A stretch of DNA of 64,000 bases from Eutypella sp. D-1 (lineage: Eukaryota; Ascomycota; Sordariomycetes; Xylariales; Diatrypaceae): assembly GCA_023313575.1 (NCBI GenBank), contig JAJTTP010000010.1, positions 434,001 to 498,000 on the forward strand, read 5' to 3'. Below, piece by piece: positions 9,827 through 37,330 of the stretch. The notes beneath the pieces were generated by a model that was given only the letters and a program-made list of their open reading frames with translations, was not told the origin of the DNA and ran no database searches. The position numbers and the translations under genes are program-made. Numbering within the stretch: the first letter of the stretch is position 1; each line of letters begins with the position of its first letter.

Positions 9827-10433
9827 CGGTGGGCTACAGCGCTGACTGTCCCAATTCCCTTTTTTTTTGCCTAAAAACGCGTATAGGGCCACCCCTATGT
9901 AGATATATATTTGGACTGCCAGCTGGCACCAAATAGGGTGTGATTTATCTTTTTTAATCACACCCATCCCATTTAATCCCATTTAATCGCACCTATTTAA
10001 TCGCACCTATACCATTTATCCTAAATAGGTTGCAATGGCTGTAATGGCTGCAATGGTTATAATGGTTACAGTGGCTATAGTGGCTGCAGTGGCTGCAGTG
10101 GCTATAATGGGTGCGATTAAATGGGTACGATTGAATGGGTGCGATTAAATGGGTGCGATTGAATAGGTGCGATTAAATAAGATAGATAGGATGGGATAAA
10201 TAGCCTGCGATGGCCCGCGATAGCCCGCGATAGCCCGTAATAGGTTGTAATAAAAAGATATAATATTATGTATTTAAAAGGCATATAGCGGGTACGTTAT
10301 TATTTTAAAAAGTATATGCATTTAAGAAAACGCGCTAAAAATCACCAGCTGGCTGTTAATACACCCTTTACTCGAATTAGGGTGCATGTATTAAAAAAAA
10401 GGGAATTGGGACAGTCAGCGCTGTAGCCCACCG
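9827..10433. mobile_element. 607-bp MITE-like element with 41-bp perfect TIRs and TA target duplication
   Basis: The left end begins CGGTGGGCTACAGCGCTGAC and the right end is its exact reverse complement. The two 41-bp termini (9827-9867 and 10393-10433) match perfectly, including an 8-base T/A run. TA dinucleotides flank both ends, as expected for Tc1/mariner-pogo-type insertion. There is no transposase frame inside, so the element is non-autonomous. Subterminal copies of CCAGCTGG plus a TAGGGTG motif occur near both ends in inverted orientation. The core is made of short tandem arrays, listed separately. The perfect termini suggest a recent insertion or active maintenance. The superfamily is inferred from the TA duplication only. 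Confidence 0.88.
9977..10241. repeat. Tandem-repeat core of the MITE-like element
   Basis: Three arrays sit in the middle of the element. First are about nine 9-bp units of the type YARTGGYTR (10033-10113). Next are about five 14-bp units GGGTGCGATTRAAT (10109-10178), with inverted partial copies of the same unit at 9977-10009. Last are about four 10-bp units of the type GCCCGCGATA (10202-10241). The inverted copies could fold the core into a long hairpin. Confidence 0.82.
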
Positions 10434-15839: not shown

Positions 15840-18362
15840 ATGACGTCAATGGAGGCAGAGTCTGTGGCGACCATCATGTGCATCAGCAAGCAGACGCGCT
15901 TCAACATCGCGGTGCCGAATTATCGGGAGGTAAGATAGGGCACAGCAGGCTTAATTTAGACACTACAACATAGACGTATCATCATTAACGTTCCCAAATT
16001 CATAGCTAGATATCGAGGGCCTGCATATCACTGTCAAGTCGGGACCAGGGCCAGATTCCAAAGGCAAGGGAAAGGGCAAGGCGAAACGGGGAGAAGGCAC
16101 TGAAATACTTAATAATGCCAAGTTGAGGTTGAAGCCTGGCCAGCGTTATGCTCTGCTTGGGCGGAATGGTACCGGGAAGTCAAGTAAGCCAGGAGATCCC
16201 CCTACCGTCTAAACCCCTTATTTGATTGGACTATGTGGTATTAACCACGTCCCGCAGCTCTCCTCAAGGCAATCGCCGAGAAGCTCATCCCCGGAATACC
16301 AGAGGAAACGCGCATTGCGATCTTACAGCAGACTGATGCCGACAATGTCAACACCGACGAGGTTCCACAAGAGTCCTCGCCTGCTTCCGTCGGAAACGTG
16401 GGGCGCAGTGTTTTAGAGGAGGTCATCGAGCGGGCTACCTCAAAGCAAGAAATCCAGCAAGAAATTGACAGTTCGTGAACGACTATTCCCCTTGATTTCT
16501 TATGTATATAATTGAAAGGCAACGCTAATTCCCACGCAGTTTTATCAGCTGGAATAGACAGTGGTAGTGCCTACGGTGCCTTGAGGGGGTTTCGGAAAAT
16601 CCGCCGCGACCGTTTGCACAAGGAATTATTCCAGAAGGACAAGGATGCCAGGCTCAGAAGTGGAACCAGGGGGCTGCAAGCTAGGAAGGCTTTGACTACG
16701 ATGGAAAAGCAAGTCGCGGAGTTTCAATCACGGTGAGCATACTTAAAATTGGCTATCCCTACTGCTACTAATGTCATACACCCCAGGTATGATCAGAGAG
16801 ATGAGGACATCTCGCCCGAGGACCTTGCCAGAGAGACCAGCGAGGCGGCCGATATGCTCGCCGATTTGCAATTGCAGGTCGAACCTTCCAAGCTGGTCGA
16901 GGTTGAAGCTGGCGCGAGGAGAATCCTCGCAGGTCTCGGCTTTTCCGAACAGTACACCCAGAGGCCAGTATCCAGCCTCTCCGGGGGCTGGAAAATGAGG
17001 ACAAGCCTGGCCGCGGCGCTGCTTCAGGAGGCGGACATTTTAATCTTAGACGAGCCGACGAACTTCCTGGATCTCCTGGGCATCATGTGGCTGCAGCGCC
17101 ACCTTACATCAATCGCGGAATCAGCAGATGCTCCGACACTGATCCTAGTATCCCACGACCGGGACTTCACATCACTCTGCTGCACAGACCTCCTGATCAT
17201 CAAAGACAAGGATCTGACATACTTTCATGGCGACCTCCCCTCGTACGAGGCGTCTCAGGCGGAGCGGAAGATTCACCTGACGAAAATGAAGGAGGCACAG
17301 GACAAGCAGAAGGAGCACGTGCAACAAACGATCCAGAGAAACATGCGCGAAGGCAAGGCCAAGGACGACCAGAACAAGATCAGGCAGGCCAAGTCCCGGC
17401 AGAAGAAGCTCGACGACCGGTGGGGCCTCGAGGTCAGCGCCAAGGGTGGCCGCTTCAAACTGAATCGCGACCTAGTGGGATATCATCTCACGAGCCGCGC
17501 CGAGATAGATGTCCCCCAGGAGCAGAAGCCGGTCAGCCTCTTGCTTCCCCCGCCCCCGGAGCTTCGATTTCCCGGCGCGCTACTATCCCTAGAGAACGTC
17601 TCATTCCGCTACCCACGGTCTGGCGGCGTAGCGGCCTCTCCAACCGTCCTAAAGAACATCACCCTGTCCATTAACGAGGGCGACAGGGTAGGCGTATTAG
17701 GACTCAACGGTAGCGGCAAGTCCACACTGATTAAGCTGCTGGTTGAGGAGGCGCGGCCAACCTCCGGGACGCTCACTGCCCACCCACGGCTAAAGCTGGG
17801 ATATTATGCGCAGCACGCAGTCGAGGATCTGCAACGGGCGGGCCGCGCTGAGCCAGACCTGACAGCGCTCGCGCTGCTTACCAGGGAGGTAGTGGCTGGG
17901 GATCCTGAGCCGGATGAGGGTGCTCTCCGCGGCATCCTCGGTTCCCTCGGCCTGCCGGGGCGGCTGGCATCTGACGTCCCCGTACGCAAACTCTCGGGTG
18001 GGCAGCTGGTACGCCTGGCGTTGGCTCAGATTCTTCGCCGGCGGCCCCAACTACTCGTCCTCGACGAGCCCACTACCCATCTCGACTACGAGACCGTAGC
18101 CGCGTTGAGAACGGCGCTCCGCGCCTGGCCCGGCGCCGTCGTGCTCGTCAGCCATGACCGCTGGTTTGTGCGCGGCGTCGTTGAGGGTCTTGTCGATGAC
18201 GCTGACAGTGACGATGAGGGAGAAGACGAGCACGAAGATGCGGCACCCAGGCGCCGCGCCGTGTTCCAGCTCAAAGCCGGACAGTTGACCGGACAGTTGA
18301 CCCGGCTTGATGGGGGTGTGGATCAGTTTGTCAAGGCGGTATTAAGACGTGTGCCCACGTGA
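15840..18362 (+). CDS. ABC-F family ATPase (two ABC domains, soluble)
   Basis: Soluble twin-ABC ATPases of this family act on ribosomes in translation or its regulation (GCN20/ABCF3-type). I read five exons: 15840-15929, 16006-16183, 16258-16470, 16540-16732 and 16787-18362. All introns are 54-76 nt with good donors (GTAAGA, GTAAGC, GTTCGT, GTGAGC) and consistent phases. The product is 749 residues. ABC1: GRNGTGKST (spans an intron), signature SSLSGGWKMR, Walker B ILILDEPTNFLD, SHDRDF. A charged, helical ABC-F linker (KMKEAQDKQKEHVQ...) follows. ABC2: GLNGSGKST, RKLSGGQLVRLA, LLVLDEPTTHLD, SHDRWF. No membrane segments. The N-terminus before ABC1 is short (~35 residues), so it lacks the long GCN1-binding extension of classical GCN20. 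The paralogue group is therefore open. It ends 71 bp from the convergent fusion gene. Confidence 0.94.
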
Positions 18363-18433
18363 TTGCAATACGGACACTGAACGAAATGACTTTCTAGCAA
18401 TTTAAGATTTCATATAGGCCCTCACTTTCTTCC

Positions 18434-21400
18434 CTAAGCACCATCAAAGACTAGAAGACTTTGGACCCGAAGTTTTCTGCCAGTGGAATCCCCGAGCAGC
18501 ATCTCCCGACCACGGTGAGCCGGAAACTCGGCCACGACCATAATACTCATACTGCTCGGCTCTATGCCAGCTTGGCTCAGCAGATTCACCACGGCACAAA
18601 GCGTTTTCCCCGTAGAAAGCACATCGTCCACCACCACCACTGACTTGGCTCTGGAGATCGCGTCCCACTCCACCTCGATACCCTTCTTTTTTGACTCCCC
18701 AGGTGTTAATGACGATATGTATGACGCAGGCTTCTCCATAGAATGAGTGGGCGGGGGGAGCTTGCCGGTTTCGCGAATCAACACCAAGGGAATATTAACC
18801 CGCGAGGCCAATACGGATGCAAAGATGAAGCCGCCAGCCTCGCAACTCACCACCGCATCAACCTTGGCCCAGTCACCAGTGAATCGTTCCTGCAAGAGAG
18901 AGGCGCACAGGTTCAGCCCACCTGGCTGCTGAGCGATACCGAGACAGTGACGGAACTCCATGCCTGAGCGCGGGAAGTCGGGTACTGAGCGTACCATATT
19001 AGCCAGTCGCCGCAGGTTCTCGTGAAAGAATGGAAGAAGTTTTCGCTCCGCGAACCTTCCTGCGGCTGTATCCCCGACCGTATCGTTAACGAACACATAG
19101 TCAGGGGGGCCGTCCAAAGCGGGCCCCCCGCATGCTTTATATGTATGATCCCAAATGTCGTCGCCACTAACACCGTTACATCTTCGGCGATCGCGAACGG
19201 TTTGTTCACTAGCTTGGACAAATACCTCGAGCATTCTGCTACCTGGTGCCAAATGCGAGAAGGTCGCCACCGGCGCATCGTCTCTCATTCCAGTGATGAG
19301 CAGCACATCCACATCTGCGGCGTCATGCACTACACTTAGAAAATGCTCTTGCTGTAGCCCCGGCCGTTTCTGCATCTGTTCGTGAAAGAATCTCTTCATC
19401 GCCGGTCGATGTTGCTCCTTGTAGGCACGGTCTCGAAGGAGGCGACTTAGATCGGAACCGCTCGACGCTGCGTATTCTCGCTTCGTCTCGTCACTGATGC
19501 TAGATATGCGTACTTTGAGATTATCGTGGGCACACTTGCGGAATACCGAGGCCCAGATCTCTGCGCAATAATCCTTGCCGACGAAACAGTCTCCCGTGAC
19601 AAGAATCACAAGCCTCGGTTCCATCGCCGCTTTTGGGAGCGGGCAGGCGTAAGCCAGTATATTGTCCGGGTCTAGTTTGCGTTTGAGACGGGCTAGGCGC
19701 TGCCGGTTGGGCCCAAAAGCCTTGGTAGCCAGCGTGGCATCCCTTGGGTCCGGCCCAAGATCGGCACCGTAAGTCCCGGCACAACTTGACAACAACTCCC
19801 CGGCGACATTGTACACCCACTCCACGGCAGATTGCGCGACCTCGGAGCCATCTTGATCACGAAACCAGACTCCGGTTATCACGCAGGCGAAGTCCCAGTC
19901 TCGACAGCCGAAGGCAATGGCGTCGGCAGCGACATCGCGGACCGCTCCACCGCCTTGCAAGAGATGTAAATAACAAAGCGATGAGGGGCAGCTCTTGACG
20001 GCCTCCTCCAAGATAAGGGCTACGGGGCCTTTTGCGACATTTCTCAAAAATATACATCGCTTGAACGAGGAAGTCTTGCCACCGCCGTGCCCGCCGTGCA
20101 TCATGGAAACGTACATCTCAGTGTCGAATAGACCGACCCCGTCCACGAGTTTCGAACCAACTTCTGTTCCCAAGATTTCAGTTACAAATTCAGGCGTGGG
20201 AGTTGCAGAGGTGAGTCGTGCCAAGGTAGATTCGATGAGAGTCACCCCAAGGTGGACCTTGCCAGAGTCCCAATACAGATACGCGTCCGCAGAACAACTT
20301 CGAGGAAGTTTGCTGGCGACCAGATTATCGAAGTCGTTCAGCCACGTGCGCATTATGTGGTCGCCCATGGTCAGCGGAATCACCCAGTTCCGGATCAGAT
20401 AGGTCGGAGCCGGGAAAGTCTTGAACGTCACACTGACGACAATGCCAAAGTTGTTCCCGGCGCCTTTGATCGCCCACAACAGATCGGACTCGTTTTCTGG
20501 GCGAACGGCACCATCTGGCCGGTGCTGGATCGGTACAGTACCTACGCAAAGGAGCTGACCAGAGGCGACGCTGACTACGACGGCACCGATAATAGCGTCA
20601 CACGCGAGCCCGTGAAGCCTAGCCAAATGTCCAATGCCGCCCTGCAACCATAGCCCTGCTCCTACGCTTGGGCGAGCCCCTAGGGGCACTGTCAAGCCTG
20701 CCGCCATGGTCTCGCGGATGATGTCTCCCGTCTTGCAGCCGGCCTCGGCCACGACCAAAGTACCAGAATCGCCTTCGCTCTGTCCCGCATGGATGATATG
20801 CAATTGGTCAAACGCACCCATGTCGATCGAGACAACATTGGGCCATAAACAGTGGCCGCTGTGTCCCCCACCAACGACAGTAAGGCCAATCTTGTTCTTC
20901 AGGGCCCATCGAACGCAGATCTGAATTTCTTGGATCTGGGTCGGCCTGACAACCGAGGCGGGACGACGTACACGAGCCTCGCGGTTTTTGACCGTATAAT
21001 TGCCCTTTATTAGTGGCACCTCAGCCTCCAGCTGCGGAATAGTGGTCGCAAATCGGTTGAAGGTCGCCATCACATTGGGCGCACTGAACAAGAGATGGCC
21101 TGGATGGGTTTGCTCACGGCGGCCTAAGGCCCGGCATATCTTACGCCACCCGAGCCGAATAGCCTTGTCCATGCACACATCCTGCATGACAACCCCCGCA
21201 ACGAAAGGGGTGAACTTGTCCAGTACCTCGTCATCATCTGCCACACGAACAACTCCAGTGGGGAAAGACGCCGTTCGATGGCACACCAAGCCATCAACGT
21301 CTAAAGAACCTTCGCGATGGAAAACCACCACTATCCCGTCTCGTGGGGGTTCGGCGAGCATTTCTAGTGCTCGTTCGATGAACCTGCGTTTGGGTTTCAT

Positions 21401-21874
21401 GCCATACATGCTGTGGCAGAATAGTATGATGTCGAACTTTTCATCATCGCACATAAGGATGGCGCTCCCAAAGTCATGCCCTGGAGAGAATGGAAATTGA
21501 TGGATATTGTAAGAGGTCTTCTCGAATTTAGAGTGAAGCCAGTCCTCTAATTCTGCGACAAACAAGCCGTTAGGCTCAAACGCAGTGTAAATCCCGATCT
21601 TGGACCTCAAATAGTCCGGAAGATGTCCCAGTATGCTCTTTGGGCCAGGTCCGATTTCCAAGACGGAGATACTGCCATGTGATTTTATGAGGGGTTCTAG
21701 CAGCTGTGATAGTTGGGGGATGATGAAGTCTTGGTACGTCGTCCATCCTGGACCCTGTAATAGGAGGTTAAAGCCATCACTGTACTGTGTGTCGGTCAAG
21801 GGATGCTTTGGGAACGACGCCATTGCCGTGACGTCCTCCCTCAAGGCCTGCTTCAAGGAGTCGAGGGTAGCCAT
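18434..21874 (-). CDS. Four-domain fusion: methyltransferase + FAD oxidase + PMVK-like P-loop kinase + PRTase
   Basis: One uninterrupted ORF of 1146 residues with four recognisable parts. (1) Residues ~65-265: class I SAM methyltransferase, motif I VLEIGPGPKS at 71-80. (2) ~303-745: PCMH/berberine-bridge FAD oxidoreductase. GGGHSG at 335-340 has the His that normally carries covalent FAD; QGGIGHLAR and the C-terminal RLKRKLDPDNIL match BBE enzymes. The usual second flavin-linking Cys is not in its expected place. (3) ~753-950: P-loop kinase with VTGDCFVGKD (Walker A), a SSISDETKREYA strand and an AYKEQHRPAMKRFF segment. These resemble animal-type phosphomevalonate kinase, whereas fungi normally use the GHMP-type ERG8. 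(4) ~957-1146: type I phosphoribosyltransferase of adenine-PRTase type, PDFPRSGMEFRHCL and PRPP loop VVVVDDVLSTGKT at 1079-1091. The whole reaction is unknown; nucleoside or purine-conjugate chemistry is an inference. The ATG at 21874 is first in frame. Confidence 0.88.
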   Translation of the reverse strand: MATLDSLKQALREDVTAMASFPKHPLTDTQYSDGFNLLLQGPGWTTYQDFIIPQLSQLLEPLIKSHGSISVLEIGPGPKSILGHLPDYLRSKIGIYTAFEPNGLFVAELEDWLHSKFEKTSYNIHQFPFSPGHDFGSAILMCDDEKFDIILFCHSMYGMKPKRRFIERALEMLAEPPRDGIVVVFHREGSLDVDGLVCHRTASFPTGVVRVADDDEVLDKFTPFVAGVVMQDVCMDKAIRLGWRKICRALGRREQTHPGHLLFSAPNVMATFNRFATTIPQLEAEVPLIKGNYTVKNREARVRRPASVVRPTQIQEIQICVRWALKNKIGLTVVGGGHSGHCLWPNVVSIDMGAFDQLHIIHAGQSEGDSGTLVVAEAGCKTGDIIRETMAAGLTVPLGARPSVGAGLWLQGGIGHLARLHGLACDAIIGAVVVSVASGQLLCVGTVPIQHRPDGAVRPENESDLLWAIKGAGNNFGIVVSVTFKTFPAPTYLIRNWVIPLTMGDHIMRTWLNDFDNLVASKLPRSCSADAYLYWDSGKVHLGVTLIESTLARLTSATPTPEFVTEILGTEVGSKLVDGVGLFDTEMYVSMMHGGHGGGKTSSFKRCIFLRNVAKGPVALILEEAVKSCPSSLCYLHLLQGGGAVRDVAADAIAFGCRDWDFACVITGVWFRDQDGSEVAQSAVEWVYNVAGELLSSCAGTYGADLGPDPRDATLATKAFGPNRQRLARLKRKLDPDNILAYACPLPKAAMEPRLVILVTGDCFVGKDYCAEIWASVFRKCAHDNLKVRISSISDETKREYAASSGSDLSRLLRDRAYKEQHRPAMKRFFHEQMQKRPGLQQEHFLSVVHDAADVDVLLITGMRDDAPVATFSHLAPGSRMLEVFVQASEQTVRDRRRCNGVSGDDIWDHTYKACGGPALDGPPDYVFVNDTVGDTAAGRFAERKLLPFFHENLRRLANMVRSVPDFPRSGMEFRHCLGIAQQPGGLNLCASLLQERFTGDWAKVDAVVSCEAGGFIFASVLASRVNIPLVLIRETGKLPPPTHSMEKPASYISSLTPGESKKKGIEVEWDAISRAKSVVVVDDVLSTGKTLCAVVNLLSQAGIEPSSMSIMVVAEFPAHRGREMLLGDSTGRKLRVQSLLVFDGA

Positions 21875-35857: not shown

Positions 35858-37330
35858 TTAGGTCTCGTCCATCATCTGGAGCGCAGTCGTTCTGCTCGGT
35901 TTCTTGGCCAGTCTATCAAACTTGCCCCGGAACATGGAAACAACTTCCGGAGTGAAGTGAGGTGGGGAAACACGGCGGTAATAAAATCCATCCGATGCTT
36001 GAAACACTGTAGGGGTTCCTTCTGGCGGGGAATCATCGTTTGCCATCGATATGCAATCGTCATCTTGTGAGGAGTCACGGTCATCAGAGGTAATCGTATC
36101 CTCAAGGACATCAACTGCTGCCAGACCTTGAAGAAACGCATGGACGTCACGTGTAACCTTCTCATCATCTTCTAGGATAGATTCCCCGTGTACTGATTCA
36201 ATATCCATAGGGCCGCCTTCGATCACGGCCTCTCTCTCGTCTTGAACAGCGCTCAAGTCATTATAGATATCGTCGTGGAAAGACAAACGCCCCTCCTGAT
36301 GTTTGATCCGTCGTGCTGGGCCTCCGTAACCGAGGTGACCACGAGCTTTTGCAGAAATTTCCTTATCGAATTCAAAGTCACGCCCAGCATCTAGCCCGGA
36401 TCGCTTTTTCTCCATTGGGCTCGAGAATCGGGCCTGGCGACGTTCCCTGGGGCGGTAGGAGTCATATTCGCGCGCTCGATGAGTCTCTCTGTAGGGGCTT
36501 CTAGAACGGGTTCTAGGGCGAGTTCTGGAGCGAGAGTCCTCGTCGCTAAAGTCTTCATAGTGATGGCCATGGCGGTGTTCACCGACCAGCTGTCGACTTG
36601 GAGAGATAGAGGTGATTCGAGCCTTCCGCCGTAGCTGAGTCAAAGAAATGTCCATCTTGTTTTGCGGACACAAAGTTGCAAAGTGGTCGCCTTTCGCCTT
36701 ACATATTTCACATCGATACTTGGGCGGCGGACGTTTATCCATGCTGGGATCCATGTTCGTCGGACAAACTTGGATCCAGTGTCCTATAGCCATAGTTAGC
36801 AGAGCACCCCATCGCACATATATATAGACCGCTTACCTGGCTTGTTACACCGATGACATATGTAGTGAAGGGGTGGCGGTCGGGAGAATGGGCGATACCC
36901 ATTAGGCTTTTGATCATCTACATAGCCCTGGGCCTTACCTCCAGAGCCATAGCGAGAGCCCTGATCTGAACTCGATTCCATGGGCAGTCTCTCTGGGGTA
37001 CGCAAGTGGCTCTTATCTTGAGGCCCAAGCGCATATCCAATCATATGGGGTTCTTGGGAGGAACGAATTAATCCAGCCTGGTCTCTTGCTTGTTTCTCTT
37101 TGCGCCCAGGGAAGTCTTTAAGCTGATATTTCTCATCAGGTTCTGTAGATGTCGGGTTGCCTCCTGGATTAAAGAAGAAGTCAGTCAGATAGGATCCAGT
37201 TAGTATCCATCTTGACTGATATATACTTGCCTGCTTCTTTGTCATGGCCTGGCTCTTGCAAAAGGAATCTACGGTCCTCATGCATGTGCAGATATGGTGA
37301 CATTGTTGAGTCTAGGGGGGTTGCTGTCAT
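35858..37330 (-). CDS. Two-CCHC zinc-knuckle protein
   Basis: Probable RNA-binding nuclear protein. Exons 37231-37330, 36837-37163 and 35858-36783 give 450 residues. Intron 2 is standard (GTAAGC..TATAG, branch GCTAAC) and splits the first knuckle exactly between PG and H. Knuckle 1: CHRCNKPGHWIQVC (~136-149, C-x2-C-x4-H-x4-C, as in Mpe1/RBBP6). Knuckle 2: CEICKAKGDHFATLC (~167-181). An Arg/Ser-rich stretch follows (~225-255, SRSRTRPRTRSRS), then an acidic C-terminal half. Intron 1 appears to be a GC-AG intron (AAGCAG/GCAAGT..CTAAC..CCAG). Alternatively translation starts at the ATG at 37281 with that segment unspliced and in frame. Compared with RBBP6/Mpe1 there is no DWNN or RING domain, so it is a separate fungal family. 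The function is not known to me. Confidence 0.8.

What the first reader, a model, noticed from the sequence alone, without database searches (positions are those of the whole stretch)
18434..21874. Four-enzyme fusion: methyltransferase, BBE-like oxidase, PMVK-like kinase and adenine-PRTase-like domain in one ORF
A single intronless 1146-codon ORF carries VLEIGPGPKS (SAM MT), GGGHSG plus a BBE tail (covalent-FAD oxidase), VTGDCFVGKD followed by features of animal-type phosphomevalonate kinase, and a PRPP loop VVVVDDVLSTGKT with an APRT-like PDFPRSG. Fungi normally phosphorylate mevalonate-5-P with the unrelated GHMP kinase ERG8, so a PMVK-like P-loop domain here likely has a different substrate. 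Joining it to a PRTase and two tailoring activities suggests a self-contained route to a modified ribosylated/phosphorylated metabolite. I know of no described pathway with this arrangement. The product is inference.
Basis: partly seen in the sequence, partly recalled or inferred. Interest (0 to 1): 0.9.

Follow-up and report, generated by a model that had tools for sequence, protein, structure and literature searches.

The report
Conserved fungal four-enzyme fusion protein
One long fungal gene joins four different enzymes in a single protein; the same protein, with its active sites kept, occurs in many mould and lichen fungi, which points to a shared metabolic pathway for which no description was found.

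The parts
18434..21874 (-). Whole ORF, 1146 codons plus stop; four-domain fusion protein
   Evidence: homologues; only full-length copy in its genome
21020..21874 (-). Residues 1-285: conserved leader and SAM-dependent methyltransferase domain, histamine-N-methyltransferase-like by fold
21635..21661 (-). Residues 72-80 LEIGPGPKS, SAM-binding motif I
   Evidence: E73 205 of 205, G75 208 of 209
19640..21007 (-). Residues 290-745: FAD_binding_4/BBE-type oxidase domain, nearest to EncM and 6-hydroxy-D-nicotine oxidase
20861..20863 (-). His338 in GGGHSGH, predicted 8-alpha-histidyl FAD attachment
   Evidence: H in 239 of 241; alignment with EncM
19160..19618 (-). Residues 753-905: P-loop kinase of the phosphomevalonate-kinase family PF04275
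19571..19597 (-). Residues 760-768 TGDCFVGKD, P-loop; G766, K767, D768 conserved
   Evidence: G 281 of 284, K 280 of 284, D 281 of 285
18437..19027 (-). Residues 950-1146: APRT-like phosphoribosyltransferase domain
18599..18640 (-). Residues 1079-1092 VVVVDDVLSTGKTL, PRPP-binding loop
   Evidence: D1083 260 of 262, D1084 257 of 262, G1089 259 of 260

Best explanation
The gene encodes a tetrafunctional enzyme conserved in Pezizomycotina. Its C-terminal half makes a nucleotide: the APRT-like domain transfers 5-phosphoribose from PRPP to a ring nitrogen of a small N-heterocycle (probably not adenine itself), and the adjacent PMVK/NMP-kinase-type domain phosphorylates that phosphomonoester with ATP. 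Its N-terminal half tailors the same compound: an HNMT-like domain N-methylates it and a mono-covalent FAD oxidase (EncM/6-HDNO type) oxidises it with O2. Shown: one ORF, four folds, intact and conserved catalytic residues, conserved linkers, wide conservation as a fusion. Inferred: that all four act on one molecule, the order of steps, and the substrate class.
Against: No substrate, expression or activity data. Pathway coherence rests on the fusion alone. Some proteins lack MT and/or FAD (P0210, P0221, P0172, P0180, P0186, P0238), so the halves may be separable, or those are decayed copies or wrong gene models. The 240 proteins listed are nearly all shortened, split or internally deleted, so the gene is often damaged, mis-assembled or mis-annotated. 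Some positions I picked vary (K79 181 of 210, R837 244 of 281). The full-length structure model is only moderate (pLDDT 67, pTM 0.41). No gene-cluster context supports a pathway.
Confidence: 0.45

Rival explanations
1. Base recycling or detoxification. The FAD oxidase and methyltransferase remove or alter a side group of an N-substituted purine (cytokinin-like or damaged base), then PRTase and kinase return the base to the nucleotide pool as mono- and diphosphate.
For: APRT-like PRTase next to an NMP-kinase-type P-loop domain (kinship of PMVK with NMP kinases recalled); FAD_binding_4 oxidases include amine oxidisers such as 6-HDNO; strong conservation would suit a maintenance role.
Against: The catalytic E-Y pair of human APRT is not kept, and the genome has a separate APRT-like gene. 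A methyltransferase is hard to place in a degradation route.
Confidence: 0.2
2. The domains act on different substrates, or one or more are regulatory sensors, and were joined only for co-expression or localisation.
For: Variants without MT and/or FAD but with kinase-PRTase exist.
Against: Near-invariant catalytic residues in all four domains and conserved linkers; fusion kept across classes.
Confidence: 0.15
3. Histamine/imidazole-type metabolism: HNMT-like methylation, FAD oxidation of the side-chain amine, and ATP plus PRPP dependent ribosylation of an imidazole, the reaction of imidazoleacetate-phosphoribosyldiphosphate ligase (EC 6.3.4.8, recalled as an activity without a known gene).
For: HNMT is the best fold match of the MT domain by more than 3 Z units; EncM and 6-HDNO are among the nearest solved oxidases; APRT attaches ribose to an imidazole nitrogen (established knowledge), and the adenine-PRTase loop is changed.
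Against: HNMT residues E28 and Q143 (histamine contacts, recalled) align with G43 and H154 here (low-probability alignment), so histamine itself is unlikely; in Foldseek the lead of HNMT over other methyltransferases is small (E 3.4e-9 against 9.4e-9); a shared fold shows no function.
Confidence: 0.07
4. The P-loop domain is a working phosphomevalonate kinase and the protein belongs to isoprenoid synthesis.
For: PF04275 above its cut-off; G-K-D of the P-loop and the YKE-R motif shared with human PMVK.
Against: ERG8-type gene in the same genome: three exon-like matches to TIGR01219 (positions 1-83, 74-321, 355-452 of 456; 75, 197 and 73 bits; none alone reaches the whole-protein cut-off of 377); P-loop KRKS replaced mostly by E/S/C/A; TIGR01223 31.9 against 188.15 bits; PRTase partner unexplained.
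Confidence: 0.03
5. Chimeric artefact or pseudogene: the fusion is an assembly or annotation accident.
For: Many shortened or split homologues exist.
Against: Full-length fusion in many independent sources with catalytic residues conserved; single intact ORF with native codon usage.
Confidence: 0.02

Closest known systems
Animal-type phosphomevalonate kinase (PF04275/TIGR01223; human PMVK 3ch4)
   Same: Family profile, GKD P-loop, YKE-R substrate-side motif
   Different: Basic P-loop residues KRKS lost, equivalog cut-off far missed, fused to three other domains
Adenine phosphoribosyltransferase (human APRT, TIGR01090)
   Different: Every APRT equivalog cut-off among the 25 of 37 families shown is missed; E104-Y105 pair and the R of DSRGF not kept
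BBE-like/VAO-type FAD oxidases: EncM, 6-hydroxy-D-nicotine oxidase
   Same: FAD_binding_4, His attachment site, fold
   Different: About 20% identity; Arg401 where bicovalent members have Cys (family motif recalled); conserved MHGGHGGGKTSSFKR motif of its own (G597 and G598 are not in its 90% list)
Histamine N-methyltransferase (HNMT, 1jqe)
   Same: Best fold match, over 233 residues
   Different: 15% identity; E28 and Q143 equivalents differ; fused to an oxidase
Fungal multi-enzyme fusions such as the pentafunctional AROM protein (recalled)
   Same: Several enzymes in one polypeptide, conserved through filamentous fungi
   Different: AROM's five steps and product are known; here substrate and order are not

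Membership tests
Phosphomevalonate kinase, animal type | PF04275 gathering score | tested here: met
   77.5 against 33.8 bits
Phosphomevalonate kinase, animal type | TIGR01223 equivalog cut-off | tested here: not met
   31.9 against 188.15 bits
Phosphomevalonate kinase, animal type | P-loop with basic KRKS before GKD | tested here: not met
   GKD kept 121 of 121; the four preceding positions are mostly E, S, C, A, against KRKS in 3ch4
Phosphomevalonate kinase, animal type | Activity on mevalonate-5-phosphate | not testable with these tools
   Needs an assay; ERG8-type gene present in the genome
Adenine phosphoribosyltransferase | TIGR01090 or NF002636 equivalog cut-off | tested here: not met
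   91.6 against 185.85; 107 against 125 bits
Adenine phosphoribosyltransferase | PRPP-binding loop DD..STG.T | tested here: met
   D1084, G1089 and T1091 each 121 of 121
Adenine phosphoribosyltransferase | Catalytic E104-Y105 of human APRT | tested here: not met
   Aligned with 1057-1058 (mostly A/T and S) or with 1060-1061 (mostly N/D and S); counts. The loop has an insertion, so exact alignment is uncertain, but neither keeps the pair
BBE-like / FAD_binding_4 oxidase | PF01565 gathering score | tested here: met
   54.7 against 26.4 bits
BBE-like / FAD_binding_4 oxidase | 8-alpha-histidyl FAD histidine | tested here: met
   H338 in 239 of 241
BBE-like / FAD_binding_4 oxidase | Second covalent link, 6-S-cysteine (bicovalent subgroup) | tested here: not met
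   Position 401 is Arg in 241 of 243; placement of the Cys by recalled family motif
Histamine N-methyltransferase | HNMT fold including the extra substrate-binding part | tested here: met
Histamine N-methyltransferase | Histamine contacts E28 and Q143 (roles recalled) | tested here: not met
   Aligned with G43 and H154 (hhalign probability only 1.3%, so alignment uncertain)
Histamine N-methyltransferase | SAM motif and methyl transfer | tested here: inconclusive
   E73 205 of 205, G77 209 of 210, E100 215 of 215; activity needs an assay

The most novel reading that the evidence does not exclude
The protein is a self-contained four-step assembly line for an undescribed methylated, oxidised, ribosylated and phosphorylated N-heterocycle made by many filamentous ascomycetes, possibly including the unassigned gene for ATP- and PRPP-dependent imidazole ribosylation (EC 6.3.4.8 type chemistry).
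Probability: 0.12. Interest if true: 0.85.

Novelty: new variant of a known kind. Interest (0 to 1): 0.6.

Why it matters
A four-enzyme protein found in six classes of filamentous ascomycetes, with the main active-site residues kept in all four domains, very probably does something useful to these fungi; yet databases name it only piecemeal (adenine phosphoribosyltransferase, phosphomevalonate kinase, 6-hydroxy-D-nicotine oxidase). If the steps are sequential, the domain set itself states the chemistry to look for (PRPP, ATP, SAM, O2), which makes an unknown pathway directly testable by expressing one gene.

Tried and rejected
Horizontal transfer or mobility: open, not rejected. A FastTree tree of 31 named members plus the query, P0001 and P0002 looked scrambled between classes, with cross-class identities up to 0.91. 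In the 43-row tree the class labels need 15 changes (least possible 6; shuffled mean 27.1), and starred branches force at least 2 for Dothideomycetes and 3 each for Sordariomycetes, Eurotiomycetes and Leotiomycetes. AU tests on 22 rows: Leotiomycetes as one clade rejected (p 7e-6), also without Hyaloscypha finlandica (p 0.018; that subset was chosen after seeing the tree); the two Hyaloscypha rejected (p 0.003 on 43 rows; 0.026 on 22); Sordariomycetes, Eurotiomycetes, Lecanoromycetes and Xylographa not rejected (p 0.53, 0.71, 0.17, 0.41); Dothideomycetes already one side of a branch (support about 61). So descent does not look purely vertical; old paralogues with losses, transfer, and wrong names or mixed MAGs cannot be told apart. 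Rows were chosen by me from named proteins. Around this copy, repeats and a DNA search of its upstream flank in the genome showed no mobile element; one search found only another sugar-transporter-like stretch.

Gene fission. At least nine pairs of listed proteins seem to be neighbours (same source and contig length; two pairs also have consecutive locus numbers, Endocarpon GJ744_006070/006071 and Diaporthe Daus18300_004010/004011). Their breaks are scattered (left parts end at consensus positions 455 to 765), which suits frameshifts, decay or gene-model splits more than a true fission. Only Endocarpon breaks at the module boundary (765, query residue 751).

Prokaryotic relatives of the kinase-PRTase half: one scan of genome contigs gave 50 pattern matches, none confirmed. 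PF04275 rang in 0 of 14 control genomes. Sequence search of the MT part against PDB gave only 8 chance-level matches, seven of them galectin-8. Biosynthetic cluster: 27 window ORFs were scanned besides the fusion and its pieces (7, 10, 10); 12 gave matches, to transporters and housekeeping-type proteins plus one weak zinc knuckle, and 15 gave none. ORF-based scanning can miss intron-rich genes. Literature: open-licence papers only; I saw listings (titles and starts of abstracts) and read no paper; one search listed 20 of 59 papers, none about such a protein by title; two searches listed 1 and 4 unrelated papers; the other seven listed none.

A Walker-A-like string in the FAD domain (GGHGGGKT) was judged not a P-loop, since the model has helix-loop-strand there, at low confidence.

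Limits: protein searches list only the best 120; two searches exclude the usual full-length fusion by length, so they cannot give the ratio of fused to split genes. No DNA of fungal relatives was at hand, so synteny, introns and dN/dS were not tested.

Full report
Observation. Window 18434-21874, minus strand, is a single ATG-started ORF of 1146 codons without introns. Simulated sequence of the same composition gives stop-free runs of at most 337 codons in 20 trials, and codon usage resembles that of five neighbours. It is the only full-length copy in its 48.5-Mb genome (19 matches, of which one is full-length, 17 lie in the FAD domain alone and one is a separate APRT-like gene). Pfam finds PF01565, PF08031 (barely), PF04275 and PF00156 in order; NCBIfam adds APRT-type matches below cut-off.

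The oxidase. The nearest solved sequences are EncM and, further down, 6-hydroxy-D-nicotine oxidase; the full-length model agrees, though with modest confidence (pLDDT 67). His338, the expected flavin attachment, is kept in 239 of 241; the place of the second, cysteinyl link (recalled motif) is Arg401 in 241 of 243.

The kinase. PF04275 is clear, and the family profile aligns to human PMVK at E 5e-11. G-K-D of the P-loop, K798, K819, E820 and R823 are nearly invariant. But the basic KRKS of PMVK is replaced mostly by E/S/C/A, and the animal-PMVK equivalog score is missed by far. The genome has an ERG8-type gene in three exon-like pieces, none of which alone reaches the whole-protein cut-off, and no other PF04275 match. 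A mevalonate role is therefore unlikely.

The phosphoribosyltransferase. Fold and profile are APRT-like and the PRPP loop is intact, but the APRT equivalog cut-offs shown are missed (25 of 37 families shown) and the E104-Y105 pair is not kept under either alignment. The base is probably not plain adenine.

Distribution. One search found 1100 proteins; the 120 listed are all 1110-1178 aa and carry PF04275, PF00156 and PF01565. The 31 named ones that I used come from Lecanoromycetes, Geoglossomycetes, Dothideomycetes, Leotiomycetes and Sordariomycetes (class labels recalled, five of them checked). Eurotiomycetes appear (Endocarpon and Aspergillus glaucus checked). Median between-class identities of those 31 are 0.79-0.86; being drawn from the best 120, they favour slow lineages. 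Members listed only in the other searches are more divergent on the whole (best matches to the family consensus 53-97%'s set and 46-92%'s). The query with P0001 and P0002 forms a divergent branch at about 66-69% to the named members. Searches, whose length limits exclude the usual full-length form, returned only relatives of the same family among the 240 listed, nearly all shortened, split or internally deleted. Among these, P0210 and P0221 have MT plus kinase-PRTase without FAD, and P0172, P0180, P0186 and P0238 have a leader plus kinase-PRTase (for P0172 and P0180 the leader was read by eye from the printed N-terminus). They may be true deletions or gene-model effects. A protein labelled Sphingomonadales (P0209) is probably fungal contamination (inference).

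Evolution. The gene tree is star-like and conflicts with taxonomy in places: Leotiomycetes as one clade is rejected (p 7e-6; p 0.018 without H. finlandica), as are the two Hyaloscypha, while Sordariomycetes, Eurotiomycetes, Lecanoromycetes and Xylographa are not rejected. So the family probably has old paralogues or has been transferred between classes; mislabelled or mixed assemblies could add to it. I claim strong conservation, and leave the mode of descent open.

Context. Neighbours with Pfam matches are OPT transporter, TRM1, a diacylglycerol-kinase-like protein, an ABC ATPase whose stop codon lies 71 bases from that of the fusion, a sugar transporter, an aromatic-acid-exporter-like protein (ArAE_2_N/FUSC), a sub-threshold zinc knuckle, Ist1, TFIID-18kDa, kinesin and thiolase. 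Ten further ORFs of the stretch 25.4-37.7 kb gave none (10 of the 28 ORFs listed). No biosynthetic core gene was seen, but ORF-based scanning can miss genes with many introns.

Mechanism. A PRTase next to an NMP-kinase-type domain, both with intact active sites, suggests base to ribotide to a further phosphorylated product; the HNMT-like MT and the FAD oxidase would tailor the base. This is inference from domain chemistry. The bolder imidazole reading rests on the HNMT fold and on APRT's attack by an imidazole nitrogen, and stays speculative.

Verdict. Real, widespread and apparently undescribed in the literature that I could search (ten searches of open-licence papers, named under Tried and rejected; listings only). 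Each domain belongs to a known superfamily, so I rate it a new variant of a known kind (fungal multi-enzyme fusion), interest 0.6.

Noticed in passing
window 18362-18434: The fusion gene and the ABC ATPase gene (16749-18362, +) converge with only 71 bases between their stop codons, so their transcripts probably overlap.
   Followed up: no
window 20057-20095: The FAD domain carries GGHGGGKTSSFKR, which fits the Walker A pattern and is strongly conserved in the family; the predicted order helix-loop-strand (low confidence) argues against a true P-loop, but the Lys/Gly cluster could bind a phosphate of the substrate.
   Followed up: partly
window 9981-10243: Cluster of short tandem repeats (14- and 28-base units AATGGGTGCGATTA, then AATAGCCCGCG-like units) between the OPT and TRM1 genes.
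   Followed up: no
window 35858-36817: 319-aa ORF (GTG start) with a weak zinc-knuckle match (zf-CCHC_2, below cut-off).
   Followed up: no
protein P0316 (Colletotrichum tamarilloi), residues 162-377: Gene model joins a tyrosinase to the MT-FAD half; probably a merged neighbouring gene, a hint at local context in that species.
   Followed up: partly
proteins P0210, P0221, P0172, P0180, P0186, P0238: Forms in which a leader or the MT domain is joined directly to the start of the kinase domain, skipping FAD or MT plus FAD, with differing left-hand ends but nearly the same right-hand end (consensus about 755-766). Unexplained; could be deletions or predicted introns.
   Followed up: partly
proteins P0048, P0114, P0051, P0084, P0094 (Leotiomycetes): Leotiomycetes copies fall in at least two places of the gene tree; their monophyly is rejected (p 7e-6). 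Old paralogy or transfer between classes.
   Followed up: partly
G000:C56:1552556-1554094: A second sugar-transporter-like locus, 67-85% identical in DNA to the transporter region upstream of the fusion gene.
   Followed up: no
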